Assembly: GCA_022360445.1 (NCBI GenBank)
Contig: JAKSCV010000055.1
Coordinates: forward strand, 1 to 64,000
Source of the DNA: Gammaproteobacteria bacterium
Lineage (GTDB): Bacteria; Pseudomonadota; Gammaproteobacteria; UBA5861
Direction of reading: 5' to 3'
Length of the DNA: 64,000 nucleotides
In this document: positions 15,413-34,196 of the stretch, piece after piece
Position numbering within the stretch: position 1 is the first letter of the stretch
Layout of the letters: each line of letters opens with the position of its first letter
Translations under genes and position numbers: made by a program
The notes under the pieces: generated by a model
Databases searched by the model: none
The model's input: only the letters and a program-made list of their open reading frames with translations
What the model was told of the DNA's origin: nothing

Positions 15413-15437
15413 GCCGCGGGCGAGTTCACTCCGCGGC
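15413..15437 (-). terminator. GC hairpin downstream of sucD
   Basis: GCCGCGG at 15413-15419 and CCGCGGC at 15431-15437 form a 7-bp all-GC stem with an 11-base loop, placed between the stop of sucD and the start of the uracil-DNA glycosylase gene. There is no clear T run after it, so it may act as a weak terminator or 3'-end stabiliser for the suc mRNA. Confidence 0.45.
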
Positions 15438-15454
15438 CTGTCCTTAAGGGTCGC

Positions 15455-16327
15455 TTACCAGCCGGTGATTTCACCTAAGCGTTTGCTTAAGTCGGCAGGT
15501 GAGTCAACAGTCGCAACGCCTGCAGCTTGCAGTGCGGCAAATTTTTCAGCGGCGGTTCCTTTGCCTCCGGAAATAATGGCACCCGCGTGGCCCATGCGCT
15601 TTCCTTTAGGTGCTGTGACACCTGCAATATAGGAAACGACCGGCTTGCTAACATTGTCTTTGATAAATTCTGCGGCTTCTTCTTCTGCGGTGCCGCCGAT
15701 TTCACCGACCATGATGATCGCTTCAGTCTGCGGGTCTTTTTCGAACAAAGCTAAAGCATCGATAAAATTGGTTCCTGGAATAGGGTCTCCACCAATACCA
15801 ATACAGGTGCTTTGTCCGTAACCGGCATCTGTCGTTTGCTTAACGGCTTCATAAGTCAAAGTACCTGAGCGGGAGACAATGCCGACTTTCCCCGGTTTGT
15901 GGATGTAGCCCGGCATAATGCCGATCTTGCATTCACCGGGTGTGATGATGCCAGGGCAGTTTGGACCAATTAAACGGGCACCACAATCGTCCACAATCAT
16001 TTTGGCTTCAAGCATGTCCAGTACAGGAATATGTTCGGTGATGCAGACAATAATTTTGATACCGGCATTTGCGGCCTCAATAATGGAATCTTTGCAGAAA
16101 GGTGCGGGGACATAAATCACGCTCGCATCAGCATCGGTTTCAGTAATAGCTTCTTTGACGGTATTGAAAACGGGGAGCCCTAAGTGCTTTTGACCACCTT
16201 TCCCTGGCGTAATGCCCCCCACCATTTTGGTGCCATATTCGATAGCCTGCTCTGAGTGGAATGTGCCCTGCTTTCCAGTGAAGCCCTGGCAAATGACTTT
16301 TGTTTCTTTGTTGATCAGTACACTCAT
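15455..16327 (-). CDS. sucD: Succinyl-CoA synthetase (ADP-forming) alpha subunit
   Basis: A 290-residue subunit with the CoA-binding Rossmann domain ([22 protein letters not shown]) and a ligase domain with the phospho-histidine region [16 protein letters not shown] (His near residue 247). With SucC it converts succinyl-CoA to succinate with formation of ATP in the TCA cycle. It is the last gene of the sucA-sucB-lpd-sucC-sucD operon and begins 1 bp after sucC ends. Confidence 0.98.
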
Positions 16328-16328
16328 T

Positions 16329-17492
16329 TTATTCTCCTACGGCCTCGACGATTTTTTTGGCTGCATCAGTCAGGCTACTGGGGGCGATGATGTTTAGGTC
16401 GCTCTCGTTTAAAATTTTCGAACCGAGATCCGCATTGTTACCTTCAAGCCGGACGACAATCGGTATTTCAATGCCAACCTCTTGTACAGCGGCGATGATG
16501 CCTTCCGCAATTAAGTCACACCGCACAATGCCACCGAAGATATTGACCAAGATGCCTTTGACCTTGTCATCGGACAGAATAATTTTCAGTGCTTCCGCAA
16601 CACGTTCTTTGGTTGTCCCCCCCCCGACATCGAGGAAGTTGGCCGGCTTGCCGCCATGCAGTTTGATTAAGTCCATGGTTGCCATTGCCAAGCCGGCACC
16701 GTTGACCATGCAGCCAATGTTGCCGTCCAGAGAGATGTAGTTGAGATCCCATTTAGAGGCTTCCAGCTCGCGTTCATCTTCCTGGGAGGTGTCGCGTAAC
16801 TCGAGCAGATCTGAGTGCCGATAAAGCGCATTGTCATCAATGTTGATTTTGCCGTCCAAACACATCAGGTCGCCCTTTTCTGTGATGATCAGGGGGTTGA
16901 TTTCAACCAGTGACAAATCCTTTTCCTGAACAAGCTTGCCCAAGCCTGTCAGCAGTTTTGTAAACTGCTTGACTTGGTCGGGGTTAAGGCCCAGGCCAAA
17001 CCCCAATTCACGGCATTGATAAGGCATCACTCCGACTAAGGGGTCAATACTGGCTTTCAGAATTTTTTCGGGCGTTTCTTCGGCAACCTTCTCAATTTCC
17101 ATGCCACCTTCTGTGGAGGCCATGATGACAACACGTTGCTGCAGTCTATCCAAAACGGCACCCAGATAGAGTTCGTTAGCGATCTGGGATGTTTCTTCAA
17201 CCAAAACCACATTAACGGGCTGGCCTGCTGCATCTGTTTGATAGGTTACAAGATTGGTTCCGAGGAGGCTCTCAGCAAAAGATTTTGCTTCACTTGAGGT
17301 ATCAACCAGTTTAACACCACCGGCCTTGCCGCGGCCCCCGGCATGCACTTGAGCTTTAACGACGGTTTTTGGGGTACTTAAACTTTCGGCAGCAGCTTTT
17401 GCTTCATCACCTGTCGCGGCTATTTTCCCATTGGGAACAGGGAGGCCATAGCTTCTGAATAAGTCTTTTGCTTGATATTCATGAAGATTCAT
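16329..17492 (-). CDS. sucC: Succinyl-CoA synthetase beta subunit
   Basis: A 387-residue ATP-grasp protein, the usual length. [20 protein letters not shown] opens it, [17 protein letters not shown] is the nucleotide-binding Gly loop, and [16 protein letters not shown] lies in the C-terminal CoA-ligase domain. It is separated from lpd by a 123-bp gap containing a compact hairpin, so sucCD may be partly uncoupled from sucAB-lpd. Confidence 0.98.
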
Positions 17493-17522
17493 AATGAGTG
17501 CTCTCTTCTTTTGTTAATTTAA

Positions 17523-17539
17523 GCGCCAGCCTCTGGCGC
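17523..17539 (-). promoter_or_regulatory. Compact hairpin in the lpd-sucC intergenic region
   Basis: GCGCCAG at 17523-17529 and CTGGCGC at 17533-17539 form a perfect 7-bp stem with a 3-base loop in the leader of sucC. The run on the minus strand after it is AT-rich but is not a clean T tract. It may be a processing site, attenuator or partial terminator between lpd and sucC. Confidence 0.45.
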
Positions 17540-17615
17540 GTGGGGGTCCTTAAATGACAGGGGCATTATATAAGAGGGCCTGTCAATAAAAATATAAAAA
17601 CATAGGTTTTCTCAA

Positions 17616-19052
17616 TTACTTTCGTTTTTTGTTAACAATATGGATGGCCCGGCCATCAGCCCCAAGTGCGGCTTCATGAAAGGCTTCAGACAGTGTTGGG
17701 TGTGCAAAAACAGTGCTGGCGATGTCTTCGCTGGTACCTTCAAATTCAAGTGCCATAACGGCCTGGCCTATGATCTCCGAGCTTTGCGGACCAATAATAT
17801 GCACACCGAGGATGCGGTCTGTCTGTTTGTTAATCAGTACTTTAACCATGCCGTTTGCATCGTTCATGGCCCGCGCACGGCCACTGGCGGCAAAGGGGAA
17901 AACCCCCGCATTGTAATCTTCGCCGGAGGCTTTCAACTCTTCTTCGGTTTTTCCTACCCAGGAAATTTCGGGGTGTGTGTAGATAACAGAAGGGATTGCA
18001 TCGTAGTTCACGTGTGCGTGATTACCGGCAATGCGCTCGGCCACCACGATGCCTTCTTCTGAGCCTTTATGAGCCAACATGGGGCCGCGTACAACATCAC
18101 CAATGGCATAAACCCCTGGAAGGTTGGTTTCGCAGTTGTCATCGACATGGATAAAGCCCCCTTCATCGATTAATAAATCGGTCTCAGGTGCCGCAATGTT
18201 TTCTGAGCAAGGTCGGCGCCCAACACAAACAATCAGACGATCAACGGATAAGGTGTGTTCGCCTTCTGGGTCTGAATAGGTGAGGTTGACCACACCTTTT
18301 TCGACGATTGATGAGGTAACGCGCGCACTTAAACGGATGTCCAGCCCTTGGCTGGAAAATTGTCTGAGGGCTTCTTTGCCAATTTCCTGGTCTACCATCG
18401 GCAGAAAAATATCCTGCGCTTCCAACAGTGTCACTTCTGAGCCTAAGCGGCGCCATACTGTGCCGAGTTCCAAGCCAATCACACCAGCGCCAATAATGCC
18501 CAGCCGTTTGGGTGCGCTATCCCAGTCCAGCGCTCCGCTGGAGTTTACAATGACGTCATCGGTCAGTGGTGCAGAAGGTATTTCCACGGGAGAGGACCCG
18601 GTCGCGAAAATGATATTTTCACTCTGGTAGGTTTTGGTTTTTCCTTTATGATCAGTGACTTCAACCTGTTTTTCCGGCAGCAGGCGACCGCGACCTTTCA
18701 GCCAAGTGACTTTATTGGCTTTTAACAGCTGTTCAACACCCGAACTCATAGAAGCCACAATTTTGTCTTTGCGAGTAACCATGGCAGCCACATCAACGGT
18801 TACTTCATTAACCGAGATGCCGTGGACTTTGCTGCTTTTTACAATATTTTCATAAGCCTCTGTGCTTTCCAGTAACGCTTTTGAAGGGATGCAACCCACA
18901 TTTGCGCAAGTGCCACCTAGTACCGGTTTACCTTGTTTACCGATAAAGTCGTCAACCAGGGCGGTATTCATGCCGAGCTGTGCACAGCGGATGGCCGCAA
19001 CGTAGCCTGCTGGGCCACCACCAATCACTATCACGTTGTATTCATTTGCCAT
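17616..19052 (-). CDS. lpdA: Dihydrolipoyl dehydrogenase (E3)
   Basis: A 478-residue FAD disulfide reductase. The FAD motif is VIGGGPAGYVAAI, the redox-active cysteines are C49 and C54 in GGTCANVGCIPSK, the NAD fold is IGAGVIGLELG, and the C-terminal dimer interface holds HAHPTLSEAFHEA with the catalytic His-Glu pair. It reoxidises the lipoamide of E2. Its place between sucB and sucC, as in Pseudomonas (lpdG), points to service of the 2-oxoglutarate dehydrogenase complex. Confidence 0.98.
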   Translation of the reverse strand: MANEYNVIVIGGGPAGYVAAIRCAQLGMNTALVDDFIGKQGKPVLGGTCANVGCIPSKALLESTEAYENIVKSSKVHGISVNEVTVDVAAMVTRKDKIVASMSSGVEQLLKANKVTWLKGRGRLLPEKQVEVTDHKGKTKTYQSENIIFATGSSPVEIPSAPLTDDVIVNSSGALDWDSAPKRLGIIGAGVIGLELGTVWRRLGSEVTLLEAQDIFLPMVDQEIGKEALRQFSSQGLDIRLSARVTSSIVEKGVVNLTYSDPEGEHTLSVDRLIVCVGRRPCSENIAAPETDLLIDEGGFIHVDDNCETNLPGVYAIGDVVRGPMLAHKGSEEGIVVAERIAGNHAHVNYDAIPSVIYTHPEISWVGKTEEELKASGEDYNAGVFPFAASGRARAMNDANGMVKVLINKQTDRILGVHIIGPQSSEIIGQAVMALEFEGTSEDIASTVFAHPTLSEAFHEAALGADGRAIHIVNKKRK

Positions 19053-19076
19053 GTTATTAATTCCTTTGGGGGGGCT

Positions 19077-20336
19077 TTAAATGTCCAGCATGATTTTCGC
19101 CGGATCTTCAACCAACTCTTTGATTGTTTTTAGAAACGTCACAGCACCTTTGCCGTCTATGATACGGTGGTCGTACGATAAGGCAAGGTACATCATGGGA
19201 CGGATTGTAATCTCGCCATCAATGACAACGGGTCGGTCCTGGATGGTATGCATGCCCAAGATTGCACTCTGAGGTGGGTTCAAGATCGGCGTTGAGAGCA
19301 ATGATCCAAAAACACCCCCGTTGGAAATAGTGAATGTTCCCCCTGTCATATCCTCAATACTCAGTTTGCCGTCGCGCGCTTTGGCGCCGTAGTCACCTAC
19401 TTGCCGCTCGATTTCTGCTAATGACATCAATTCCGCGTTCCGCAAGATGGGAACGACAAGGCCACGATCGGAGGAAACTGCAACCCCGATATCACAGAAC
19501 CCATGGTAGACAACATCGTTGTCGTCAAGGGAGGCATTGACGTCGGGGAAACGTTTCAGTGCCTCTGCACTGGCTTTGACAAACATGGACATAAATCCCA
19601 GCCGAACGCCGTGTTTTTCTTCAAAAGATTTTTTGTAATTTTTGCGCATATCCATCAAGGGCTTCATGTCAACTTCATTGAAGGTTGTCAACATGGCCGT
19701 GCTTTGTTGCGCATAAAGCAGGCGCTCTGCAATTCGGGCACGCAATCGTGTCATGGGGACACGGCGAGAAGGGCGTTCTTCATCCGCTAACGGTACGGAA
19801 CCTGCCGTGGGCGGTGCCAGTTTGATTGGAGCAGACTCTTCCTTTGCTTTCGTTTCGCGTTTGCTTTCTGTTTGAGGTTTATCTGTTTTTTGTGCTTGCG
19901 ACGCCTCGTGATTGAGCACATCTTCTTTGATGATGCGCCCACTTTTACCGGTACCCACAATGGTGCTTGCATCAAGCCCTTTTTCAGCAATAAGCCGGCG
20001 AACAGCCGGGCTGGTCTGAGGGTTTGACTTTGTTTCGCTTTCGGCTGTTTCAGCCTCTTTTGCTTGGGGCTTTTCAGTAACCGATGATGCAACGCTTGCA
20101 CCTTCTGCGATCACTCCCAGAACCTGATCAGCGACAACAGTAGCGCCTTCATCTTCCATAATCGTTTTCAGTACACCGGAAACCGGTGCAGGAACCTCAA
20201 GCACCACTTTATCTGTTTCGATGTCAACGAGGACTTCATCGCGCTCAACGGCATCACCTGCCTTTTTATGCCATGTTAAAACCTGCGCATCAGCAACCGA
20301 CTCTGGCAGGGCGGGTACTTTGATTTCTACACTCAT
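19077..20336 (-). CDS. sucB: Dihydrolipoamide succinyltransferase (E2 of 2-oxoglutarate dehydrogenase)
   Basis: A 419-residue E2 with one N-terminal lipoyl domain (lipoyl Lys43 in ETDKVVLEV), a flexible Ala/Glu/Lys-rich linker at about 95-200, a peripheral subunit-binding domain ([22 protein letters not shown]), and the catalytic acyltransferase domain ending in [12 protein letters not shown], where the His and Asp are catalytic. It moves the succinyl group from E1 to CoA. The gene is 8 bp from sucA and 24 bp from lpd. Confidence 0.98.
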
Positions 20337-20344
20337 TTTGTGTC

Positions 20345-23218
20345 CTATTTATTTTTGGATGGGGGGTTGAATTTAAAGCCTGACTCGCCAAGTGGCTGCC
20401 GTAGACCAAAGGCTTCTTCAACCAATGCTTCTTGCTCTTTCAGGTGAATGTTGTGTTGACCAACAGCAGGCGAGGCTGATGCCGCACGTCCGGCATATTG
20501 CAGATTTTTGTGCCCACTGTGCTTCATCGTGTGTTCAATTCGGTGTCGAGTTGAACGCCAAGCGCCTTGATTACGCGGTTCTTCTTGACACCAAACAATG
20601 GTGTCCGCATTTTTATAGCGTAAAAATACGTTATAAAGCTCTTCATAAGGGAAAGGATAAAGTTGCTCAATACGCACGATGGCCGCATTGTTAAATTCTC
20701 CCTCGCGTCGTTTTTGAAGAAGATCGTAGTAGACCTTTCCGCTGCAGAGAATCAGGCGATCAACGCTCTCGGGTGCAATGTCTTCCACTTCATCAATAAC
20801 ATTCTGAAAGGTGCCTTCTGCGAGTTCCTCCAGCGTGGAGACTGCCAGCTTATGGCGGAGCAGGCTTTTAGGCGTCATGACTACCATGGGTTTGCGTAAA
20901 GGCCGCAACATTTGCCGCCTGATCATGTGATAGGCTTGGGCTGGTGTTGAAGGCACCAGAACCTGCATATTGTCATCAGCACACAGCTGCAGGAACCGCT
21001 CCAAGCGTGCGGATGAATGTTCTGGGCCTTGGCCCTCATAACCGTGAGGTAAGAATAAGGATAAGCCACAGACTCGCCCCCATTTGACTTCCGCCGAGCT
21101 GATAAATTGGTCAATGACAACTTGGGCGCCGTTGGCAAAATCACCAAATTGGGCCTCCCAAATAACAAGCGTTTTAGGGTCGGTTGTTGCATAGCCATAC
21201 TCAAAGGCCATGACAGCCTCCTCAGAGAGTAATGAGTCGATCACGAGGAAGTTGGCTTGGTCCTCTGCCAGATTTCTCAGAGGGATATATGCACTGCCAT
21301 CCTTTTGATTATGTAGAACAGCATGGCGATGAAAAAATGTCCCACGACCGGCATCCTGGCCCGAGAGGCGAACGCCGTACCCATCTGTGACCAGAGTGGC
21401 GTAGCCCATGAGCTCTCCAAAACCCCAGTCAATGGGTAAGGCCCCTGCGGCCATTTTTCTTCGGTCGTCAATAATTTTGGCCACCCTGGGGTGCAGGTCA
21501 AGCCCATCGGGCAGGTGGGACATCCGGGCACCCAGTTCTTGAATCGTCTGTATAGGAACGGCCGCCGGGTAAGGCGTTAACCAGTCACTTTTCAGGTAGG
21601 GGCTCCAGTCCACTGTAAATTCATTGCTATGAGTTTCATCTTCAATCACGCCCGGTGCAACACAGTGGCCGGCATCCAGCTCGTCACGAAAATATTTAAC
21701 AAGGTCATCCGCATCACTCTTCCCAATGACCTGCTCTTCGACCAGTTTTTGAGCATAAAGTTGGCGGGTAGTGGGTAGGGCTTTGATGTGCTTGTACATC
21801 ATTGGCTGAGTGGCCGAGGGTTCATCGGCCTCATTGTGCCCGTGGCGGCGGTAGCAGCACATGTCAATGATGACGTCTCTTTGGAACTGTATTCTGAAGT
21901 CAAGCGCAAGCTGAGTGACAAAACGAACAGCCTCAGGGTCATCACCGTTGACGTGGAAAATGGGCGTATTGATCATTTTTGCCACGTCAGTGCAATAGAG
22001 TGTTGAGCGTGAGTCCTTGATATTACTAGTGGTGAACCCGATCTGGTTGTTGACAATAATATGTACAGTGCCTTTGGTCGAAAACCCGCGGGAGTCCGAC
22101 ATGCTGAAGGTTTCCATGACGACGCCCTGCCCGGCAAATGCTGCATCACCATGAATTGAAATAGGCAGCACCTGGCTACCATCCTTATCCTGGTGACGGT
22201 CCTGACGACAGCGTGCGGAGCCTAAAGCCACTGGCGAGACAATCTCCAAATGAGATGGATTAAATGACAAAATGGCATGCATAGAGCCGCTTTCTGTTGC
22301 AATATCCGACGAAAATCCCTGATGGTATTTTACGTCACCGGAGACAATGTCAGACTGGTGTTTGCCTTCAAACTCGGAAAATAAATCGGAAGGCTTTTTC
22401 CCAAAGATATTGATCAGCACATTCAATCGACCCCGGTGAGCCATACACATCATCAACTCTTTGACACCTGCCTGACCACTGCGCTTGACAATTTCATCAA
22501 GAATGACAATCAGGCCTTCACCGCCCTCCAGTGAGAACCGCTTTTGTCCCACGTATTTGGAGTGTAAATACCGTTCGATGCCTTCTGCTGCTGTTAGCCT
22601 ATGAAGAATGTTTTTCTTCGCATCCGGCTCCAGCGTGGGCGCGGAGCATACACTCTCCATGCGTTGCTGCAACCACTCTTTCTGAGTTGTGCTGGAAATA
22701 TGTGTAAACTCGATACCTACTGAACTGCTGTAGGTCTTTTTGAGAATATCCACGATCTCCTTGAGTGTTGCCTGCTCTGGGCCGCTTAAGGAACCGGTCT
22801 GGAAAGTGGTTTCCATATCTGCGAGCGTTAACCCGTACTCTTGTAGCTCAAGTTCCCTGACTTCACCCAGATCCAGCCGGCCTAACGGGTCAATCTTGGC
22901 GGCTTGGTGACCGCGCGTCCGGTAAGCATTGATTAAGCGGGATACCCCTACTTGCTTACGTTCATGCTCAAATGAAGCATCAGCCACCGGGCCTTTTCTG
23001 CGAGTACCTTGCTGGTGAGCGAGCTGGTAAAAATACTGTTTAATTTCAGCGTGAGGGATATCAATCGCCTTACCATCCACAATCGGCAGCGTCTCAAAAT
23101 AAGCACGCCACTTTTCTGGGACTAAGTTAGGGTCTCTTAAATAAGTCTCATACAGCTCTTCCAGGTAAGCGCTGTTACCGCCATCGAGTAATGACGTACT
23201 GAGCATTTCTTTCATCAT
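20345..23218 (-). CDS. sucA: 2-oxoglutarate dehydrogenase E1 component
   Basis: A 957-residue thiamine-diphosphate enzyme. The N-terminal E2-binding region ([22 protein letters not shown]), the active-site AHRGRLNVL, the ThDP-binding [11 protein letters not shown]...NNQIGFTT region and a transketolase-like C-terminal half are all present. It decarboxylates 2-oxoglutarate and succinylates the lipoyl arm of SucB. It is the first gene of the operon, reading leftward. In many gammaproteobacteria sdhCDAB lies directly upstream; here an HD-domain gene and non-coding DNA lie there instead. An adjacent ATG at 23215 is an equally possible start. Confidence 0.98.
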
Positions 23219-23850
23219 GGCTTAATTAGATCCTCTATGAGCTGTATGGCGGGTATAAAAAGTTTGAAGTGCTGTGTGGCACAAACTTACTCTACCGGGC
23301 TTATTGGCCGTATCTACGTTAGTGACGGATTTCGTTAGAGCAAGTTCCATTTCAATCGTTATTGCTTATCCATGCTTACAAAATACGTTGGATTGGGCCA
23401 AACAGTCAGAGTTTGAGAGTCTTGGCACCAAACCCAAGTATAGTTAAAAAAAATAATGAGTGGAGTAAATGCTAATAATCAGCAAGTTACCGTTAAATTC
23501 TACCGGATTTTGTTGGCATAAAAAATCCAAACGTGAGGGCGCGGCACTTTTTTTGAAAAATTACAATTGTTCGGTTATCAGACCTGTTTTGAAATCTGTT
23601 ACAGACGAGTATAGGCCCAATGAGAAAGGTACTTAACAAGCATTTTTAAAGCATAAGTGTGAATGGGTCCAAAGCCACCTTCCGAATGCCAGAACTTCTT
23701 GGGGCGAACAAATTTCTGGCTGATTGCCTGGCGATGAAGCGCCTAAAGAACCACCGTTGATTGAACATAGCCGCAATAGGTGTTAAACCTGACCATAGAA
23801 AGAAGGGCGTGATCAAGAAAACAGTATCGGCTGTTAGGAGGAGGCAATAC
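23219..23850. other. Non-coding stretch upstream of sucA, with an unexplained open segment
   Basis: This 632-bp AT-rich region must hold the sucA promoter (minus strand) and that of the HD-domain gene (plus strand). I see no convincing gene. One segment, 23599-23745, is open without a start codon on the minus strand (47 codons, including KFVRPKKFWHSEGGFGP), and the same DNA is also open on the plus strand as a 33-codon tail (NGSKATFRMPELLGANKF). This may be a gene fragment or a dispersed repeat. I do not recognise either reading. Confidence 0.5.
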
Positions 23851-24435
23851 TTGACCGATAAAATTTCAGCAATATCCGATTTTTTGATTCAGTTAGATGC
23901 CTTAAAATCGGTGAATCGCCGTACCTACATCAATGGTGGGGAAAGGGTAGAAAACTCAGCAGAACACTCATGGCACCTTGCCATGGCATGCTGGGCTTTT
24001 GCCGAGCAACTGCCAGAAGATTACGATGTTACAAAACTCATCAAACTTGCATTAATCCATGATCTCGGCGAAATCGGTGCGGGAGATACCTTTCTTTACA
24101 GCAAGCATAGAGACAGCGCTCATATTCAAGAGCGTGAAAGCGTAAAACAAACGGCCTCGCACCCGGGTAATCCCATTGGAGACATCGTTGAACTTTGGGA
24201 AGAACAAGAAATGGGCGAGAGTAAAGAAGCAAAACTGCTCAAAGTGATCGACCGCTTATTACCCTTTCTCCATAATATCACCAGCGAAGGCCGAGCATGG
24301 CGGGATAACGGCATACATAAGCACCAAGTACTAAAAATGCACCGGTTTATAGAGCGTGAAAGTTCAGAAATCTACGAATGGTTTATCGCAAAGCTTGAAT
24401 ATGCAGTTGAACGAGGCTGGCTTAATACCCTCTAA
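23851..24435 (+). CDS. HD-domain phosphohydrolase (YfbR/HDDC2-like)
   Basis: A 194-residue HD-domain protein: first metal His in NSAEHSWHLA (His39), the HD pair in LALIHDLGEIGAGD (His70-Asp71) and a later Asp in LLKVIDRLLPF. The pattern matches the 5'-deoxynucleotidase YfbR/HDDC2 group, so a nucleotidase role is likely but unproven. The start is TTG 23851, preceded by a strong GGAGGAGG at 23837-23844 with 6 nt spacing; the longer frame from 23761 has no such signal and adds a basic, unstructured tail. The gene lies just left of the element remnant. Confidence 0.85.
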   Translation: MTDKISAISDFLIQLDALKSVNRRTYINGGERVENSAEHSWHLAMACWAFAEQLPEDYDVTKLIKLALIHDLGEIGAGDTFLYSKHRDSAHIQERESVKQTASHPGNPIGDIVELWEEQEMGESKEAKLLKVIDRLLPFLHNITSEGRAWRDNGIHKHQVLKMHRFIERESSEIYEWFIAKLEYAVERGWLNTL

Positions 24436-24511
24436 CCCGCTGATTCATTACATGCCTGTCGCGCCCGTTTGCTCGACTGAGAGCAAGGTAAACCCTGGAC
24501 TAAAAATGGAT

Positions 24512-24552
24512 GCGCCCGGAGAGCTTTGTACCCCCGTCTAACGGGTTCGAAG
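24512..24552 (+). repeat. Degenerate tRNA-Arg 3' fragment (probable att remnant)
   Basis: This matches 25698-25738 of the intact tRNA-Arg(TCG) in the same orientation with no gaps: 12/12 bases in GCGCCCGGAGAG, 13/20 in the middle, and 9/9 in GGTTCGAAG, 34/41 overall by hand alignment. The similarity ends abruptly after GGTTCGAAG. It is the expected distal attachment-site copy left when an element inserts into a tRNA 3' end. Confidence 0.7.
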
Positions 24553-25071
24553 AGCTGAAAGTTACACTTCAATATGCAGTTAATTTAAGTTGAATTCACT
24601 TGCCCTTGCCAATTAATAACGTGTCACTTCACGTTTAATCGTTGAGTGAGCATTAAACCAAAGAACACGACTTAGCATAACGCCATAAATGGCACGGCCA
24701 TGTGTTTTTTTGTACCCACTTCACCCAAAAAACACCGTAAAACGGGCTAATATGTCGGGCATAATTTCGCCTACAGGTCTTGAGCGACACGCGTGTTTTA
24801 AAATTTTCGAATAACCTGGTTTTCCTGAATCGTTCGGGCCTTAAACTGCGGTTAGTCCGTCTAAGATAAAAGAGAGTGTTTGGTTCGTTGCAAGCTGATT
24901 AATACCTGCGACGTTGCTGATGGACGCAAGCCTTATTGATTTTCCTTCGCCAGGGTCAACTAGAACCTGGTCTTGTTCAAGCGGATCAACCCCCAGTACA
25001 CCGTAGCCTGGATTGCCGTTCACAAGGATGTTTTAAATCAGGTGCGGTCAGGTGCTCATGGTGTTGGTACG

Positions 25072-25263
25072 TTTGCCTGCGCTTTCGCCTAATGGACGCG
25101 ATTAGCGAGAGTCGCTTGCTTCCCGCTCGGAAGTAGCTCCTCTCTCCTCGTCAGTCAGTTCGAATTCGTCCGCTAATGTGTCCACCACATTACGAATACG
25201 GACTTCCCCTGCTTCAGAGCACTTGAGAACTGGCCTCATTAAAGTTTGCTAGTCAGGTATCAC
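25072..25263 (-). pseudogene. mrr restriction endonuclease, N-terminal fragment
   Basis: Read leftward from GTG 25263, the translation is VIPD-stop-QTLMRPVLKCSEAGEVRI, continuing RNVVDTLADEFELTDEER. This is the Mrr N-terminal winged-helix domain (family pattern IPDYQxLMxPxL...ADEFxLTxEER). After a one-base insertion near 25138 the frame resumes as ELLPSGKQATLANRVH, then a TAG at 25089-25091 stands where Trp is usual. So there are three lesions: Tyr to stop at codon 5, a +1 frameshift, and Trp to stop. The catalytic nuclease domain is absent. An AAGGAA ribosome site precedes the old start. Mrr cleaves modified DNA. Confidence 0.75.
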
Positions 25264-25274
25264 GACAATTCCTT

Positions 25275-25481
25275 TCAGTCTTGGTTTGCGTTTTTTTGTT
25301 CTTCGATCCATTGGTCAATATCTTCACGCTTGAAGCGCCAGCTCCCCCTGGCCTTGAAGCCCGGCAATTTGCCTGCTGCGGCCAGCTTGTAGACTGTTCT
25401 TTTCGGCGAGCTTAACACATTGGTCAACCCCAGCTCGAAAAGCAGATTACGCAGTAAAAAGGTCTTCTGTGTGCTCGTTTG
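25275..25481 (-). pseudogene. Excisionase-family helix-turn-helix fragment
   Basis: The frame between stops at 25484 and 25275 encodes a C-terminal MerR/excisionase-type HTH: SSPKRTVYKLAAAGKLPGFK followed by ARGSWRFKREDIDQWIEEQ. This matches the small DNA-binding proteins found in integrated elements and restriction modules. There is no ATG; TTG 25427 would give 50 residues, lacking the usual N-terminal LLTxxEVAxLL in a good form. It lies just upstream of the mrr fragment on the same strand, with 12 bp between its stop and the mrr start, so the two were probably one operon. It may be intact but short, or 5'-truncated. Confidence 0.65.
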
Positions 25482-25513
25482 TTAAGAGGTGTTGATGAGC
25501 GTTTTGAACCGCG

Positions 25514-25693
25514 ATGGATTTTCTCTCAAACCCGCACGAACTCTGGGCTTCAGAGCGTATTGAAGACCGTCATGCAGTGATGAAACTCACTTTGCCGACA
25601 GATTAGCGTATGTGCGTGGAGAAGGTTTTCGAACCCCCGAAACTACCTTACCTTTCAAAGCGTTAGGTGGCTTTTGCGGGGGTGAAAACAAAA
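25514..25693 (+). pseudogene. Serine recombinase, C-terminal fragment
   Basis: From 25514 the plus strand reads MDFLSNPHELWASERIEDRH then AVMKLT, after which a one-base deletion near 25590 shifts the frame and it continues as FADRLAYVRGEGFRTPETTL then PFKALGG. This is the typical C-terminus of large-serine-type phage/island recombinases (family pattern NPxxLWxSGxxExRRxVLKLxFADRLxYxRxEGFRTPxxxLPFK). It runs up to the tRNA-Arg 3' end. The catalytic N-terminal resolvase domain is missing, so the gene is dead. The assignment rests on recalled family patterns. Confidence 0.68.
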
Positions 25694-25770
25694 TGGCGCG
25701 CCCGGAGAGATTCGAACTCCCGACCAACTGGTTCGAAGCCAGTTACTCTATCCAGCTGAGCTACGGGCGC
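25694..25770 (-). tRNA. tRNA-Arg(TCG)
   Basis: A 77-nt cloverleaf on the minus strand. The acceptor stem GCGCCCG pairs with CGGGCGC, the discriminator is G, and CCA is encoded. The anticodon stem CTGG/CCAG encloses the loop CTTCGAA, giving anticodon TCG (Arg). The T-loop is TTCGAAT. Its 3' end is the inferred attachment site of the decayed element to its left. It is probably cotranscribed downstream of tRNA-Arg(CCG). Confidence 0.95.
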
Positions 25771-25799
25771 TTTGATTGGGTCTTTTGTTTATTTTGAGC

Positions 25800-25876
25800 T
25801 GGCCCGCCCGAGAGGATTCGAACCTCTGACCTCCGCCTCCGGAGGGCGGCGCTCTATCCAGCTGAGCCACGGGCGG
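25800..25876 (-). tRNA. tRNA-Arg(CCG)
   Basis: A 77-nt cloverleaf on the minus strand. The acceptor CCGCCCG pairs with CGGGCGG, the discriminator is G, and CCA is encoded. The anticodon stem CCGCC/GGCGG with loop CTCCGGA gives anticodon CCG (Arg). The T-arm AGAGGTTCGAATCCTCT is intact. It lies 29 bp upstream of tRNA-Arg(TCG) in the direction of transcription. Confidence 0.95.
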
Positions 25877-25969
25877 TCATCACTGGACAGGACATCATAC
25901 CCTTGTCTTGTGTTAGCGTCCAATTCTACAGGGTGCGACCGATTAAGTCCCAAGCTTTATTCATTGGCT

Positions 25970-27892
<1,923 letters not shown>

Positions 27893-27918
27893 TCACTGCA
27901 TATAGGGTGTGTATTGCA

Positions 27919-27948
27919 ATTGTACTGATAATGCGAACGGTATGTCAG
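27919..27948 (-). promoter_or_regulatory. Candidate sigma-70 promoter of thiC
   Basis: On the minus strand a -35-like CTGACA (27943-27948) and a -10-like TACAAT (27919-27924) are separated by 18 bp, about 35 bp before the thiC ATG at 27883. Such a short leader leaves little room for a riboswitch. Confidence 0.45.
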
Positions 27949-28311
27949 TACTCGATGGTTTTGAGAGAAGTTTTGAAAAAAGCAAGTCATAAGCGGGGCT
28001 TCACAAAACGATGCATCACGTTAGTGTGTCATCATCTGACTTTTTTAAGTTAACGCGTATCACCAAAAAGCTATAGTGAACGGGTGCTTAATGCAAGCTT
28101 TCTGGGAGATCAGAACATTTTGATAAATTGTAAGGCGCAAGAAAGCGAATTCTTAGTAGAATGAGTCGGGTGAGAAATTGTTTTGTTATCCTTGATCACT
28201 ATCTTGAAACAAGGCATCAGAGCTAAAAATGATAGCTTACTATCAATCTATATATTATTATTTACTGATATTCCTCCAATAAACTCACGACCCAGGCTGG
28301 ATAAAAATACG
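27949..28311. other. Intergenic region between thiC and the TolC-family gene
   Basis: 363 bp without a supported gene. The only open frame is the upstream extension of the TolC-family gene from 28183, which lacks a signal-peptide-like start. I looked for the TPP-box sequences on both strands and found none. The divergent promoters of the two flanking genes must lie here. Confidence 0.6.
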
Positions 28312-29610
28312 ATGAAAAATATGCTTAAGCCCATCTTTACAAGCCTTCTCTACTGCTCAGCTGTTTTGGCGTTTCCGGCTTTTGGTGAAGATTTAATCGA
28401 TATCTACAAGCAAGCGCTGACCAACGATCCAACATATCAGGCGGCGCGCTATGATCATATGGCGGTTTTGGAGCTCCGCCCGCAGGCAAAGGCGACTTTG
28501 CGCCCTCAGGTTGATCTGTCGGCCAATGCGGCCTGGAATGAAATAGAAGACGACAAGATGAGTGTGTTTGACAGTCAGGGCTATTCCTTAACCTTGACAC
28601 AAGCGCTCTACAATCAGCCTGCTTTTGCCGCAGTGAATCAGGTCGACTTAACCATTGCCCAATCGGAGGCGGCTCTGGAAAGTGCGCTAAATAGCTTAAT
28701 GCTGCGCTCATCAGAGGCGTACTTTAATATTATTTCTGCCCACGATGAGCTCGAATTTGCCGTGTCGGAGCTGAACGCTATTGAGCGCCAGCTGGAACAG
28801 GCGGAAAAGCGTTTTGAAGTGGGTTTAAGCGCGGTGACGGATGTGAAAGAGGCGCAAGCGCGCTACGACCTGGCCGTTGCCCAGAAAATTGCAGCCACGA
28901 ACCAGTTGGCACAAGCGGAAGAAGCTTTAAAAACACTCACCAATCAAGACTACCAAACATTAAGCCCTCTCAAAGAGGATATGAGCTTTTTGCCGCCTAA
29001 CCCTGAGGACATCAATTATTGGGTCACATTGGCTGAAAAAAACAACCGCCGGTACCTTTCTGCCCAGTACGCGACGCAGTCAGCAGAGGAAGAAATCAAA
29101 CTGCAAAAGGGCTTTCACTACCCGGCGCTCAACCTGGTTGGTAGCCACAGCGATACACAAAGTGATAATCCATTGGTTGAGAGTCGCAGAACAGCGCTGA
29201 TGCTTCAACTTGATGTAGAGTTGTATTCCGGTGGTTCAACCTCATCAAAAGTACGCGAAGCAGAAGCTAAGTTGATGTCCGCACAACGTAATCAGGAATT
29301 ACAGCGTCGCTTGGTACTGCAACAAACACGCAATGCCTATTTAGGCGTGATTGCGGATATCAGCCGGGTTAAAGCATTAAAACAGGCGCTTATTTCCACA
29401 CAGGCTGGAGCGGATGCAACCCAGGCAGGGTTTGATGTTGGTACGCGGACTGCTGTTGAGGTCCTGGTTGCACTACGTGAAACATTCCGGGCGCAAGCGG
29501 ACTATTCCAAAGCACGTTATGCCTACATTCTTAACTCATTACGATTGAAAGAGGGGGCGGGTTCATTGACGGCGGCCGACCTCGAAGAAATCAACACCTG
29601 GCTCCAATAG
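28312..29610 (+). CDS. TolC-family outer-membrane efflux protein
   Basis: A 432-residue outer-membrane channel subunit. The signal peptide is MKNMLKPIFTSLLYCSAVLA followed by FPAFGE, then DLIDIYKQALTNDPTYQAAR, the classic TolC opening. Two repeats of coiled-coil/beta elements follow, with the paired signatures RFEVGLSAVTDVKEAQARYD and DVGTRTAVEVLVALRETF. It forms a trimeric tunnel for type I secretion or RND/MFS efflux. No inner-membrane pump is adjacent, so it is probably the general TolC. I chose ATG 28312 because it starts the signal peptide; the frame extends upstream to 28183. Confidence 0.94.
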   Translation: MKNMLKPIFTSLLYCSAVLAFPAFGEDLIDIYKQALTNDPTYQAARYDHMAVLELRPQAKATLRPQVDLSANAAWNEIEDDKMSVFDSQGYSLTLTQALYNQPAFAAVNQVDLTIAQSEAALESALNSLMLRSSEAYFNIISAHDELEFAVSELNAIERQLEQAEKRFEVGLSAVTDVKEAQARYDLAVAQKIAATNQLAQAEEALKTLTNQDYQTLSPLKEDMSFLPPNPEDINYWVTLAEKNNRRYLSAQYATQSAEEEIKLQKGFHYPALNLVGSHSDTQSDNPLVESRRTALMLQLDVELYSGGSTSSKVREAEAKLMSAQRNQELQRRLVLQQTRNAYLGVIADISRVKALKQALISTQAGADATQAGFDVGTRTAVEVLVALRETFRAQADYSKARYAYILNSLRLKEGAGSLTAADLEEINTWLQ

Positions 29611-29629
29611 GCGACCGGATAAAACAGAC

Positions 29630-30187
29630 ATGCGCTTGTGCAATGCCGCCCAATCTGTGCTCATTGTGGTTGATGTACAGGCCGGCTTACTCCCAGCAAT
29701 GACAGTCGCCGCCGGTGAGCAGCTGGTTCAAAATAGCATCAAGCTGCTTAAAGTGGCGGATTTGCTGGATATTCCCACACTGGTCACTGAACAGTACCCC
29801 CAAGGTCTTGGGCACACCGTGGCAGAGCTGCAAGCGCATTATCCCGAGCCTTCCCGAGTTGTGGAAAAGCGTACTTTCTCGGCCCTTCAGTGTGAGTCAT
29901 TCAAAGACTTGTTTGACTACGCGGGTCGAAAGCAGGTGATTGTCTGCGGCATGGAGGCCCATGTTTGTGTGTTACAGACCGTTATGGGTTTTTTGGACCT
30001 CGGTATACAGCCGTTTGTGATGAGTGATGCTATCTGCTCCCGTCTTGAGAACCACAAGCAAAATGCCCTTGAACGCATGGCTGCTGCCGGAGGTGTTATC
30101 AGTAATGTGGAATCCACTTTGTTTGAATGGATAGCGGATTCACGACACCCGAAGTTCCGGCAAATACTCGCCGACATCATTCGTTAA
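29630..30187 (+). CDS. Isochorismatase-like cysteine hydrolase (YcaC-type)
   Basis: A 185-residue isochorismatase-fold hydrolase. The catalytic triad candidates are the Asp in LIVVDVQAG, the Lys in VEKRTFSA and the Cys in VCGMEAHVCVLQT. The cis-peptide region precedes the Cys as usual. Family members cleave amides or vinyl ethers; the substrate is unknown. It begins 19 bp after the TolC-family gene and ends 15 bp before the LpxL-like gene, so it may belong to an envelope operon by position only. Confidence 0.88.
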   Translation: MRLCNAAQSVLIVVDVQAGLLPAMTVAAGEQLVQNSIKLLKVADLLDIPTLVTEQYPQGLGHTVAELQAHYPEPSRVVEKRTFSALQCESFKDLFDYAGRKQVIVCGMEAHVCVLQTVMGFLDLGIQPFVMSDAICSRLENHKQNALERMAAAGGVISNVESTLFEWIADSRHPKFRQILADIIR

Positions 30188-30202
30188 TCAACCGGAGGTT
30201 GA

Positions 30203-31117
30203 ATGGACACACCGCTAAGGCTCAGCGAATACCTGGCTCCCCGGTACTGGCCAACCTGGTTACTGCTGGGCATTTTACGTGCATTAGCCTTTCTGCCCTT
30301 CAGTGCGCAAATGCGCATTGGCAGAGCCTTGGGTACACTACTTTATCATTTGGTACCTGTTCGGCGGCATGTGGCCTCAGTTAATATCCGCTTGTGCTTT
30401 TCTGAACTGACCGCCTCGGAGCAGAAAAAGCTGCTGCGACAGCATTACCAGTCACTGGGGATGAGTGTGATGGAAACGGCCGCACTTTGGTTTACCCCCG
30501 TTGAAAAATTGCTGTCCCGGGTAACATTCATCGGGCTGGAGCATGTCAAAAAAGCCCAGGAAACGGGACAAGGTGTGCTGGTTGTTCAAGCGCATTTTAC
30601 GACTATGGAGTTTCTGGGTAACCTACTGGCCACTCAGTTGCCGATTGCAGCAACCTATGATGAACCCAATAATGCCTTTTACCGAGCGCTGCTGAATAAT
30701 CGCCGGGGCCGCTTTGTGGACGATATTATCAGCCACCGGGATGTGCGAAAAATTGTAAAACGCTTATTATCGGGAAAAGTCACACAATATTCACCGGATC
30801 AGGCGGCGCATAAAAGCCGGGCTGTGGTGGTTGATTATTTTGGCCGGTCAACGCTGACCACAACAGCGACTTCACGTTTAGCGCATGCAGGTAAAGCCCT
30901 GGTTATCCCTTACGCACCCAGGCGTAACAAAGATAATCTCACCTACGAGGTTGAGTTTTATCCGCCACTGGATCACTTCCCAACAGAAGACCTAAAAGCC
31001 GATACCCAGCGTATTAACCATATTTTTGAAGGGCATATTCGCCAAGTCCCTGAGCAATACCTGTGGGTGCACAAGCGATTCAAAAAGAGCGTTAAGAACG
31101 CCACTAACCCTTACTGA
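30203..31117 (+). CDS. Lipid A biosynthesis lauroyl acyltransferase (LpxL/HtrB family)
   Basis: A 304-residue inner-membrane acyltransferase. The HX4E catalytic motif is His131/Glu136 in VVQAHFTTMEFLG, an N-terminal hydrophobic segment anchors it, and YSPDQAAHKSR corresponds to the conserved xPDQxxG-like block. It adds a secondary acyl chain to Kdo2-lipid IVA. GGAGG precedes ATG 30203. The stop overlaps the start of waaA in an ATGA, linking late lipid A acylation with Kdo transfer. Confidence 0.93.
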   Translation: MDTPLRLSEYLAPRYWPTWLLLGILRALAFLPFSAQMRIGRALGTLLYHLVPVRRHVASVNIRLCFSELTASEQKKLLRQHYQSLGMSVMETAALWFTPVEKLLSRVTFIGLEHVKKAQETGQGVLVVQAHFTTMEFLGNLLATQLPIAATYDEPNNAFYRALLNNRRGRFVDDIISHRDVRKIVKRLLSGKVTQYSPDQAAHKSRAVVVDYFGRSTLTTTATSRLAHAGKALVIPYAPRRNKDNLTYEVEFYPPLDHFPTEDLKADTQRINHIFEGHIRQVPEQYLWVHKRFKKSVKNATNPY

Positions 31118-32403
31118 TGATGGTTAAGGCCTTACTCGCCAAATGGCGTTACCGGGCAACGCTCATGGTGCTTTTCCCTGTTATTGTGGGTTATACCGTG
31201 TGGCGCGCTTTCAAGGACGGCGGGAGAACATATGCGCTTCAACGCTTTGCACTGGGAATACAGTCGCTTGCTCGACCGCTTTGGTTTCACTGTGCTTCAG
31301 TTGGGGAAGTGAATGCTGTGTTGCCCTTGCTCAAATTGCTGCAAAAGCAACACCCAGCACAAACTGTTTTGGTGACGACTAATACGCCGACAGGGCGTGA
31401 TACCTTTATAAAGCAGGCCCCTTCAAACGCACAGCACCTCTATTTACCGTTGGATTACACGTTTGCTGTGCGTCGGTTTTTAAAGCGAATACAGCCATCT
31501 GCATTGATTGTCGTCGAGACAGAACTTTGGCCACATCTTTTTCTGAGCTGCTTTTCAAAGCAGATCCCGGTTGTCATCATTAATGGCCGGCTGAGTCAGC
31601 GGACGCTGGCCGCTCAAAATTGGCTGAAGCAGCTGTACCGTCTTTCCCTGCAGGAAGTCACCGCCGTTCTAGCGCGGTCTGAGGACGATAGGCAGCATTT
31701 TATGACTTTGGGTGCGCCGGCTGCACGAATCAAAATGCTGGGCAACATCAAATTTTCTGGCCAGCCATTGGCGTCGGAGGAAAAGCCAGCCCGGCTTATC
31801 GAGCAGCCTTATGTGTTGGTGGCGTCAACCCATCAAGATGAAGAGATGCAGTTTGCCCAGTGCTGGAAAACGCATCAAAACAAGAAGTCTTGCCAAAAAC
31901 GGTTGCTTGTTGTGGTGCCCCGGCATCCGGAGCGAGGCCCTGCAATTCGTAGTCAGCTTGCTGCGACGGGCATCACCGTGCAATGCCGGAGTGAGAGTCG
32001 GGTTGTTAATGTGGGTACAAGGCTTTACATTGCGGATACTTTGGGCGAGCTGAAAACGCTGATGCAGCATGCGGATCTTGTCGTCATGGGTGGTTCATTT
32101 ATTCCACACGGTGGGCAGAATTTATTGGAGCCTGCGACTTTCGGTCAAGCGATAATCGTTGGACCCTTTATGGACAACTTTGCTGAGGAAACCGCCAGCC
32201 TGCTGGCGCACAAAGCTATTTTACAAGCCCATAGTGTTGAGGAAGCATGCGGACAGATTGAGACATTACTGAGCCATCCAAAAACCGGTCAACAATTGGG
32301 TGTGGCTGCTCAACGCTTCATGAAAGTGCGTCGCCACATTGCCCAGCAGTATTTGGATGAATTGGCGCAGCGGCTCTCAAGTGTGGGCGTAACCTTCCAG
32401 TAG
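31117..32403 (+). CDS. waaA: 3-deoxy-D-manno-octulosonic acid (Kdo) transferase
   Basis: A 428-residue GT30 glycosyltransferase. An N-terminal membrane segment is followed by WFHCASVGEVNAVLPLL, the acceptor-side domain with its catalytic Glu (GEV), and later by VVMGGSFIPHGGQNLLEPA, the CMP-Kdo-binding C-domain. It adds Kdo to lipid IVA. It overlaps the acyltransferase by one base and ends 27 bp inside the convergent Kdo kinase gene. Confidence 0.96.
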   Translation: MMVKALLAKWRYRATLMVLFPVIVGYTVWRAFKDGGRTYALQRFALGIQSLARPLWFHCASVGEVNAVLPLLKLLQKQHPAQTVLVTTNTPTGRDTFIKQAPSNAQHLYLPLDYTFAVRRFLKRIQPSALIVVETELWPHLFLSCFSKQIPVVIINGRLSQRTLAAQNWLKQLYRLSLQEVTAVLARSEDDRQHFMTLGAPAARIKMLGNIKFSGQPLASEEKPARLIEQPYVLVASTHQDEEMQFAQCWKTHQNKKSCQKRLLVVVPRHPERGPAIRSQLAATGITVQCRSESRVVNVGTRLYIADTLGELKTLMQHADLVVMGGSFIPHGGQNLLEPATFGQAIIVGPFMDNFAEETASLLAHKAILQAHSVEEACGQIETLLSHPKTGQQLGVAAQRFMKVRRHIAQQYLDELAQRLSSVGVTFQ

Positions 32404-33093
32404 TGCGGTCCAGAATGAGGGTAGATTTTTACGTGATGAAGCAGACCAAACTTTCTGCAATGAACGGTGCAGACGGGATAAATTCTGTTGTTTCCAGTAA
32501 CGGCCCTTGCGAAGGGTGCCGCGGTCAAAATCAATCAGGAAAACACGGTCAGCTTCGTCGATGAGAATATTGTTGGCATTTAAGTCGGCATGAAAAATTT
32601 GGTGATCATGAAACTGGCGAATCGTGGTGCCTACTTTGTGCCACAGTGGCCGAGGTAAGGAACCTGCTATGAAGCGTTCAGCCAGGGTGTGTGTGCCCGG
32701 CAGATGCCGAGTGATTAAGTCCGCTTGATACATCAGCCCGGAACGCCTCACATGCGCTGCAAATGGCTGAGGGCAAGGCAGCTGCCACGCAGACGCCGTG
32801 GCGAGCAGACGCCATTCGTGCCAGGCTCGGGTGTTTTGCAGGCCGCTCCAGAGGTACAGGTCTTTATTGACTTTAGCGGGCAAGCCCCCTCGCCGGTAGT
32901 GGCGCAGTACATAATTTTGATCTTGCCAGTGAAAGGCCCATGCTGAACCACGGCCCTGCATGTTCGTGCTTATCAGGCAGTTTTGTTCAGATAAAAACGT
33001 GGGTGAAAAAAGCGACGGAGTAAACGTCTCTTGGTGGTTTTCGTCAAAAATAAAGTAGTCTGCACCTTCATGGCGCTCACATACGTTGATCAA
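32377..33093 (-). CDS. kdkA: 3-deoxy-D-manno-octulosonic acid kinase (KdkA)
   Basis: A 238-residue kinase-fold protein of the InaA/WaaP group. The catalytic loop is IFHADLNANNILID and the metal-binding loop is VFLIDFDRG; YVLRHYRRGG holds the ATP-site lysine/arginine region. It phosphorylates the single Kdo of LPS with ATP, as in Haemophilus and Vibrio. The start appears to be TTG 33093. Its 3' end overlaps the 3' end of waaA on the opposite strand. Confidence 0.92.
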   Translation of the reverse strand: MINVCERHEGADYFIFDENHQETFTPSLFSPTFLSEQNCLISTNMQGRGSAWAFHWQDQNYVLRHYRRGGLPAKVNKDLYLWSGLQNTRAWHEWRLLATASAWQLPCPQPFAAHVRRSGLMYQADLITRHLPGTHTLAERFIAGSLPRPLWHKVGTTIRQFHDHQIFHADLNANNILIDEADRVFLIDFDRGTLRKGRYWKQQNLSRLHRSLQKVWSASSRKNLPSFWTALLEGYAHT

Positions 33094-33143
33094 AAGCCGG
33101 CTGGGCTCCCCGCAGTTAAAATAGGCTGATAGAATACCGGATC

Positions 33144-34196
33144 ATGTCTCACCCGCCTAGCAAAGCCCCTCATTCTATTTGCCTGCTGCGCCTTTCCGCG
33201 TTGGGCGATGTCATGCACATGGTGCCGATTGTACGCACTTTGCAAGCAGCGTGGCCCGACTGCCAGATAACCTGGGTGATTGGCAAGCTGGAAGCCGAAC
33301 TGGTCAAAAATCTGGAGGGCGTCCGGCTGGTTGTGTTCGATAAATCCCAGGGTTGGAGAGCCTACCTTGGCCTGAGGCGCGCACTCAAAGGTGAGCATTT
33401 TGATTTTTTGCTGCATATGCAGGCTGCACTGCGCGCCAGCCTGGTGCGCCTGATGATTCACTCTGATCTCTGTTTAGGGTTCGACCGGGCAAGGGGTAAA
33501 GATCTGCAATGGCTGTTTACCAATCAACAGATCCCGGCGCATCCGGGTCAGCATGTCTTGGACAGTTTTTTTTCTTTTTTGGAGTCGTTGGGGGTTCAAG
33601 ACAAACAGCTCCGGTGGGATCTTCCCATTGATCCAGCGGCTCAAATGTATGCGAAAAATCAGCTGGGAGATCAACGCACATTGATCATCAACCCGGCGGC
33701 CAGTTTTACTTACCGCAACTGGTTTGCCGATCGTTATGCCGCGGTGGCGGATTACGCCTTTACTCGGTATGGGTTGAAAGCGGTCTTAACAGGCGGCGCT
33801 ACAGAGATCGAAAAACATCTCGGTCGGGACATTGAGGCCGCTACGAGTTACCCGGTCACGAACCTGATTGGGGCAACTTCCTTGCAGGAGTTGCTGGCGC
33901 TGATTTTTCAGGCTGACCTTGTGATTGCGCCGGATACCGGGCCTGCTCACATGGCGACAGCGGTGGGCACGCCGGTCATAGGTCTTTACGCAACAACTAA
34001 CCCATTGCGTGCGGCACCTTATTTGAATCAACGAGATGTTGCCAGTGCCTATGAAACAGCAGTTCTTAATGCTTATGGAAAGCCTTCTGATCAGCTGTCG
34101 TGGGGAACGCGCGTGCGTGATCAGCAAGCGATGAAGCTGATCACGGTGGAGCAGGTTAAGCAACAGTTGGACGCTGTCATGGCTCGGTTAAGTTAA
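33144..34196 (+). CDS. LPS heptosyltransferase (GT9 family, WaaC/RfaF-like)
   Basis: A 350-residue GT9 glycosyltransferase: ICLLRLSALGDVMHMVPIVR at the N-terminus with the base Asp, INPAASFTYRNWFADRYAAV in the centre, and the sugar-nucleotide site VIAPDTGPAHMATAVGTPVIGLY. It adds heptose to the LPS inner core. The SALGD motif and its position next to the Kdo kinase favour heptosyltransferase I (Hep onto Kdo). It is divergent from kdkA, 50 bp apart. Confidence 0.9.
   Translation: MSHPPSKAPHSICLLRLSALGDVMHMVPIVRTLQAAWPDCQITWVIGKLEAELVKNLEGVRLVVFDKSQGWRAYLGLRRALKGEHFDFLLHMQAALRASLVRLMIHSDLCLGFDRARGKDLQWLFTNQQIPAHPGQHVLDSFFSFLESLGVQDKQLRWDLPIDPAAQMYAKNQLGDQRTLIINPAASFTYRNWFADRYAAVADYAFTRYGLKAVLTGGATEIEKHLGRDIEAATSYPVTNLIGATSLQELLALIFQADLVIAPDTGPAHMATAVGTPVIGLYATTNPLRAAPYLNQRDVASAYETAVLNAYGKPSDQLSWGTRVRDQQAMKLITVEQVKQQLDAVMARLS

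What the first reader, a model, noticed from the sequence alone, without database searches (positions are those of the whole stretch)
24512..24552. Ungapped 41-bp tRNA-Arg fragment copy as fossil att site
By hand alignment with 25698-25738 it is 34/41 identical, with exact blocks of 12 and 9 bases at the ends and the mismatches concentrated between. Identity stops sharply at the anticodon region. The spacing between blocks is the same (20 bases) in both copies.
Basis: seen in the sequence. Interest (0 to 1): 0.55.

Follow-up and report, generated by a model that had tools for sequence, protein, structure and literature searches.

The report
Decayed tRNA-Arg half, island scar
A short, worn copy of the second half of a nearby tRNA-Arg gene most likely marks where a mobile DNA island once inserted into that tRNA; this is an ordinary kind of scar, here an old one at a spot that seems to have been reused.

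Summary
In detail: 24512-24552 matches 25698-25738 at 34 of 41 bases, ungapped. Its local score is 47, against a maximum of 30 in 2000 dinucleotide shuffles. With one inserted base the copy runs from the CCA complement (24507) to 24552, the 5' edge of the anticodon loop. Homology into the tRNA 5' half is not significant (171 of 2000 shuffles as good).

The fossil att reading is supported. Exact 46-bp repeats with the same boundary flank inserts at tRNA-Arg and tRNA-Thr genes in L043, L057 and L109; L109 encodes a tyrosine integrase.

The 1.1 kb between scar and tRNA is wreckage: the end of a serine recombinase gene (82% to an intact one beside another tRNA-Arg of this genome) and pieces of an HTH/Mrr gene pair. 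The sister species keeps a more worn scar, and different DNA abuts its tRNA. The scar therefore predates the split.

Such scars are known. The less ordinary lead is the recombinase family: 15 of 20 loci have an intact tRNA 3' end at one fixed distance.

The parts
24507..24552 (-). Decayed 3' half of tRNA-Arg(TCG), from the anticodon loop to CCA: fossil att site
   Evidence: 34/41 identity of 24512-24552 to 25698-25738; TGG at 24507-24509; boundary equal to that of exact 46-bp repeats in relatives
25694..25770 (-). Intact tRNA-Arg(TCG), the target gene
   Evidence: ARAGORN; Rfam RF00005 67.5 bits
24553..24751 (.). DNA next to the scar on the tRNA side, shared with the sister species; presumed relic of the old island's inner end
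   Evidence: Alignable to G001 C31 (164 of 193 aligned columns identical); its origin is inference
24752..25080 (.). Stretch of unknown origin, not aligned to the sister species
   Evidence: The match to G001 C31 stops at 24751, 47 bases before that contig ends; the 63-aa open frame 24841-25032 has no relative in 26 other genomes and no Pfam or NCBIfam match; the frame 24921-25136 has one Pfam match below its cut-off (Transp_Tc5_C, 19.4 against 27.4 bits)
25081..25413 (-). Remnant of an HTH_17 gene and the start of an Mrr-type restriction gene
   Evidence: 87% to own-genome contig C69, where both genes are open; HTH_17 E 1.4e-12 in window:25275-25481
25414..25693 (+). Remnant of the 3' end of a serine recombinase gene abutting the tRNA 3' end
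   Evidence: 82% DNA identity to the C24 recombinase over 25414-25670; protein match 25490-25597 with 3 TGA inside; flush junction with TGG as in relatives
23761..24435 (+). HD-domain gene, the presumed chromosomal flank beyond the scar
   Evidence: HD_3 E 1e-34; shared with G001; 9 of 274 class genomes, this one and G001 included, have a match

Best explanation
The fragment is the displaced 3' half of tRNA-Arg(TCG), left by an island that integrated by crossover in the anticodon loop. The island's attP carried its own tRNA 3' half, which rebuilt the gene at one junction. The original 3' half, with its old downstream flank (the HD gene), was pushed to the far end. This happened before the split from the sister species. 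Freed from selection, the displaced half decayed. Later the rebuilt tRNA was used again: in this genome by an element of a serine recombinase family that abuts tRNA 3' ends, and in the sister species by other DNA. Deletions then shrank this genome's load to 1.1 kb. Shown: homology, orientation, boundary, presence in the sister species, recombinase debris, and different DNA at the tRNA end in the two species. Inferred: that the first integrase was a tyrosine recombinase, the order of events, and the deletions.
For: Homology far beyond chance. The 26 bases beyond the first 20 nt of the tRNA end still match 20/26 (binomial P about 2e-7 at p = 0.27), so the copy is not just the 19-20 nt acceptor end. 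Best cognate within the genome: tRNA-Arg(TCG) 34/41, Arg(ACG) 29, Arg(CCG) 23. The boundary equals that of exact 46-bp repeats at Arg and Thr tRNAs (L043, L057, L109); L109 has a Phage_integrase gene inside (E 2.5e-39). In L050 a 45-nt tRNA 3' half lies at the recombinase end, followed by genes that I read as prophage (no family search) and no intact tRNA within the 10 kb held. Islander lists 2083 islands with anticodon-centred sites (PMC4383910, passages). The sister species has the scar in worse state: 33 of 43 aligned columns identical, against 164 of 193 in the adjoining stretch and 542 of 587 in the HD gene, while 25691-25800 is 100% identical.
Against: No tyrosine integrase remnant was recognised in the 1.1 kb. 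No empty site was found: G001 is occupied and its contig ends there, and of 8 HD-gene loci in other genera the 5 that I scanned (1.5 kb each side) have no tRNA. The only recombinase debris is of the serine kind and sits at the tRNA. If a serine element came second, a further acceptor-end fragment would be expected between 24553 and 25690; none was seen (best other 20-mer in 23301-25691 is 12/20), so it must have been deleted. An Islander-type filter would reject the site: the interval is under 2 kb and holds no intact integrase. The cognate test does not point to this genome alone: Arg(TCG) of other families scores up to 34/41 (7 genes, mean 33.1) and one Arg(ACG) 32.
Confidence: 0.75

Rival explanations
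1. One event only: the serine recombinase element itself made the scar. Its attP carried 45 nt of tRNA, its recombinase end now abuts the tRNA, and the fragment is its far end.
For: It is parsimonious: recombinase debris at the tRNA and a tRNA half at the other end. In L043, L050 and L057 a 45-nt tRNA half lies flush with a recombinase of this family.
Against: For 8 of 8 family members searched 38-40 kb beyond the first 10 kb (L044 60 kb and L053 40 kb more) no 46-bp far-end repeat was found; 1 of 8 (L041) has a 19-bp one. The other 12 loci were not searched further out. The closest described system, DsiB of Dehalococcoides, makes 20-bp repeats in the T loop (PMC3146451, passages). G001 has the scar but no recombinase match (a search without a positive control). 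In L043 and L057 the halves lie between recombinase and tRNA and fit a later insertion.
Confidence: 0.15
2. A decayed duplicate of the whole tRNA-Arg gene whose 5' half has eroded beyond recognition.
For: A weak, gapped resemblance to the tRNA 5' half further out.
Against: That resemblance is not significant (171 of 2000 shuffles as good). Chance erosion would not favour a stop exactly at the anticodon-loop edge, the boundary of the 46-bp repeats.
Confidence: 0.07
3. Chance or convergent resemblance.
For: The middle of the alignment has 7 mismatches in 20.
Against: 0 of 2000 shuffles reach the score; the copy is also partly kept in the sister species.
Confidence: 0.01

Closest known systems
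Genomic island in a tRNA gene with displaced tDNA fragment (Islander signature, anticodon-loop site 'A'; PMC4383910, passages read)
   Same: tRNA, interval and displaced 3' fragment in the same orientation; boundary at the anticodon loop
   Different: Fragment decayed (34/41), interval only 1.1 kb, no intact integrase; a relic rather than an island
ssrA islands of Dehalococcoides with CcrB-like serine recombinase DsiB (PMC3146451, passages read)
   Same: Serine recombinase gene whose 3' end runs over the att site and into a structural RNA gene at its 3' end; tandem reuse of one site
   Different: Here tRNA-Arg, only a broken C-terminal piece; 20-bp T-loop repeats there against a 46-nt anticodon-loop scar here
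tRNA gene fragments from phage integration (PMC9897764, passages read)
   Same: Partial tRNA copies as att remnants, described there as expected to be pervasive
   Different: That paper concerns fragments mis-annotated as tRNA genes; ARAGORN and Rfam do not call this one

Membership tests
tRNA-gene island scar (displaced tDNA fragment) | Fragment cognate to the neighbouring intact tRNA | tested here: met
   34/41 to Arg(TCG), 29 to Arg(ACG), 23 to Arg(CCG) of the same genome
tRNA-gene island scar (displaced tDNA fragment) | 3' fragment, downstream, same orientation as the tRNA | tested here: met
tRNA-gene island scar (displaced tDNA fragment) | Fragment ends at a known crossover sublocation | tested here: met
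   Ends at the 5' edge of the anticodon loop, as do 46-bp repeats in L043, L057, L109
tRNA-gene island scar (displaced tDNA fragment) | Integrase gene in the interval | tested here: not met
   Only a broken C-terminal piece of a serine recombinase with 3 TGA
tRNA-gene island scar (displaced tDNA fragment) | Interval of 2-200 kb (Islander filter) | tested here: not met
   1.14 kb (24553-25693); it therefore counts as a relic, not an island
tRNA-gene island scar (displaced tDNA fragment) | Empty site in a relative | tested here: inconclusive
   The only same-genus genome held is also occupied and its contig ends there; 5 of the 8 HD-gene loci in other genera were scanned and none has a tRNA beside it
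CcrB/DsiB-like tRNA-end serine recombinase (debris at the tRNA) | Resolvase and recombinase zinc-ribbon domains | tested here: met
   For the intact relative on C24: PF00239 and PF13408; the window piece itself is too short
CcrB/DsiB-like tRNA-end serine recombinase (debris at the tRNA) | NCBIfam cut-off for CcrB | tested here: not met
   77.4 bits against a cut-off of 900: a distant relative, not CcrB
CcrB/DsiB-like tRNA-end serine recombinase (debris at the tRNA) | Gene 3' end at a fixed distance from an RNA gene's 3' end | tested here: met
   Of 20 loci: 15 intact tRNA at +68, 3 tRNA half at +68, 1 (L059) neither, 1 (L052) not evaluable because the match stops at residue 315; the window has the same junction

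The most novel reading that the evidence does not exclude
The site records successive use of one tRNA gene by two unrelated integrase chemistries. One is an anticodon-loop (tyrosine-type) island that left the scar. The other is a CcrB/DsiB-like serine recombinase family that is specialised on the 3' ends of many different tRNA genes (Arg, Ser, Leu, Ala) and whose reading frame runs on into the tRNA. Islander (2014) stated that serine integrases were not known to target tRNA genes.
Probability: 0.6. Interest if true: 0.5.

Novelty: new member of a known kind. Interest (0 to 1): 0.22.

Why it matters
By itself the scar is an ordinary trace of island integration. It shows a displaced tRNA half decaying while the tRNA gene stays identical between two species, and it led to a serine recombinase family that appears to target tRNA 3' ends, which could be tested directly.

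Tried and rejected
Chance resemblance: rejected by shuffles. A covariance model of tRNA does not see the copy. The scar as an acceptor-end-only repeat (19-20 nt class seen at L017, L021, L111, L112 among 91 tRNA contexts, which also shows one 28-nt case, L010): rejected, because 20 of the 26 bases beyond that length also match. I first took the 20-bp copies in G071 as far ends of its serine element. One search shows them in a repeated context (two of them 174 bp apart), so I do not count them; they resemble the tyrT/RtT repeats of E. coli only from recall (search 80 listed nothing on this that I opened). Far-end repeats of the serine elements: 0 of 8 loci with 46 bp, 1 of 8 (L041) with 19 bp. 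Empty-site comparison in Thiodiazotropha (20 genomes; 8 relatives' stretches fetched) and Devosia relatives (21 genomes; 5 relatives' stretches fetched and 1 locus compared): no relative's flank gave a clear match to the far side of the element in G060 (about 110 kb searched) or G065 (about 90 kb searched) (one 166-base match of L109 inside L114 at 73% was not followed); L106 matched G071 about 650 bases beyond its outermost 20-bp copy. Plasmid and phage collections: no recombinase relative at or above 60% identity (76 plasmid records and 202 phage records, all below). The HD gene as a synteny marker: matches are rare and none of the five loci scanned lies beside a tRNA. In the tally identical contexts were merged, which hid L109; it is counted.

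Full report
What is there. The window carries two tRNA-Arg genes on the minus strand, anticodon TCG at 25694-25770 and CCG at 25800-25876 (Rfam agrees). The 41 bases at 24512-24552 match the 3' half of the first at 34/41 without gaps, with exact blocks of 12 and 9 bases. The match scores 47 locally; 0 of 2000 dinucleotide shuffles of the interval reach it (maximum 30). The next best 41-mer in the window after the two tRNA genes is 23/41. Read on the minus strand, the copy begins with the seven bases of the anticodon loop, runs through the variable region, T arm and acceptor strand, and ends in CCA at 24509-24507, with one inserted base before the CCA. Towards the tRNA 5' half the resemblance ends: 171 of 2000 shuffles do as well. 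Rfam's tRNA model does not report the copy.

What lies between scar and gene. A search of the own genome shows that 25081-25413 is 87% identical to contig C69. There an HTH gene and an Mrr-type restriction gene are open beside a MmeI-type methylase. It also shows that 25414-25670 is 82% identical to the 3' end of a 545-aa serine recombinase gene on contig C24 (Resolvase plus zinc ribbon). That gene runs convergently into a tRNA-Arg(ACG). In the window the recombinase piece has 3 TGA stops, and the two pieces meet abruptly at 25413/25414, as a deletion would leave them. In the 24752-25080 stretch no relative was found for the one minus-strand frame searched in genomes.

The sister species. One same-genus genome is held (G001). 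It is collinear from 14242 to 24751 on its contig C31, including the scar, and from 25691 to 35662 on its contig C34, including the tRNAs. On C31 the contig ends 47 bases after the match. On C34 different DNA begins within a few bases of the CCA end; it carries a TetR-like gene (my reading), an Mrr_cat gene and a MUG113/T5orf172 gene. The scar matches between species at 33 of 43 aligned columns with 4 gap columns. The stretch inside it matches at 164 of 193 and the HD gene at 542 of 587, while 25691-25800 is identical. So the scar predates the split, is not under the constraint that holds the tRNA, and what abuts the tRNA differs between the two species.

Why a crossover scar and why of the anticodon type. 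Exact 46-bp repeats that run from one base past CCA to the 5' edge of the anticodon loop flank inserts in L043 (tRNA-Arg ACG, 3.1 kb), L057 (tRNA-Thr, 1.5 kb) and L109 (tRNA-Arg, 4.9 kb). L109 holds a tyrosine integrase. In L043 and L057 I recognised no integrase in the insert (ORF lists; Pfam on three of the proteins). In L050 a 45-nt 3' half, from its loop sequence I judge tRNA-Lys, lies at the recombinase end, followed by DNA that I read as prophage (no family search). The window scar ends at exactly this base. A shorter class of repeats, 19-20 nt to the T loop, also exists, but the window copy is homologous well beyond it (20 of the next 26 bases). Islander counts 2083 anticodon-centred and 1836 T-region islands (PMC4383910, passages). 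I infer a tyrosine-type integrase for the scar; none was recognised in the window interval.

The serine recombinase family. Of 20 loci found with the C24 protein in genome contigs, 15 have an intact tRNA 3' end exactly 68 nt after the last matched codon (one, L053, after correcting for a match that stops 5 residues early). The tRNAs are Arg(TCG), Arg(ACG), Arg(CCG), Ser(GGA), Ser(TGA), Leu(GAG), Leu(TAG), Leu(CAA) and Ala(GGC). Three (L043, L050, L057) have a tRNA 3' half there. L059 has neither, and L052 could not be judged because its match stops at residue 315. The window junction has the same form. The Islander paper states that serine integrases were not known to target tRNA genes. The nearest described case in the passages I read is DsiB, a CcrB-like recombinase whose gene always overlaps the att site in ssrA, with 20-bp repeats (PMC3146451). 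Literature searches listed no paper that I recognised from its title and abstract start as describing such a tRNA family. Searches showed 15 of 28, 15 of 17 and 12 of 19 papers, and I opened only PMC3146451, PMC4383910 and PMC12884075 of those listed (passages), so this is weak evidence of absence. Far ends of these elements remain unmapped: of 8 loci searched only L041 shows a 19-bp repeat. That this family integrates at tRNA ends is therefore strong inference, not shown.

Judgement. The scar is an ordinary, decayed member of a known class. The rival that a single serine element made everything cannot be excluded (0.15).

Noticed in passing
L040-L059; L003 1350-2987; window 25414-25693: A serine recombinase family whose gene 3' end lies 68 nt from the 3' end of diverse tRNA genes in 15 of 20 loci; in C24 and several relatives the frame runs on into the tRNA.
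   Followed up: partly
L017, L021, L111, L112; L072 4607-4625; L126 16590-16783: Repeats of the last 19-20 nt of tRNA genes (one base past CCA to the T loop) a few hundred bases downstream of the gene or further out; in G071 two copies lie 174 bp apart.
   Followed up: partly
window 24841-25032, minus strand: 63-aa open frame inside the wreckage with no match in 26 other genomes, Pfam or NCBIfam.
   Followed up: yes
window 23761-24435: HD-domain (HD_3/YfbR-like) gene, rare in the class (9 of 274 genomes, this one and G001 included), so itself perhaps acquired.
   Followed up: partly
L037 8376-16417: Own-genome defence-like cluster: Mrr and MmeI-type methylase and a helicase-like gene (my reading); its HTH/Mrr start is the family of the window remnant.
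   Followed up: no
L105-L112 and L144, L153-L157: tRNA ends with differing neighbours. Thiodiazotropha relatives: of 8 flanks compared with each other only L105/L108 and, in part, L111/L112 share DNA well beyond the tRNA. Devosia relatives: none of 6 flanks matches G065 on the element side of the tRNA (not compared with each other).
   Followed up: partly
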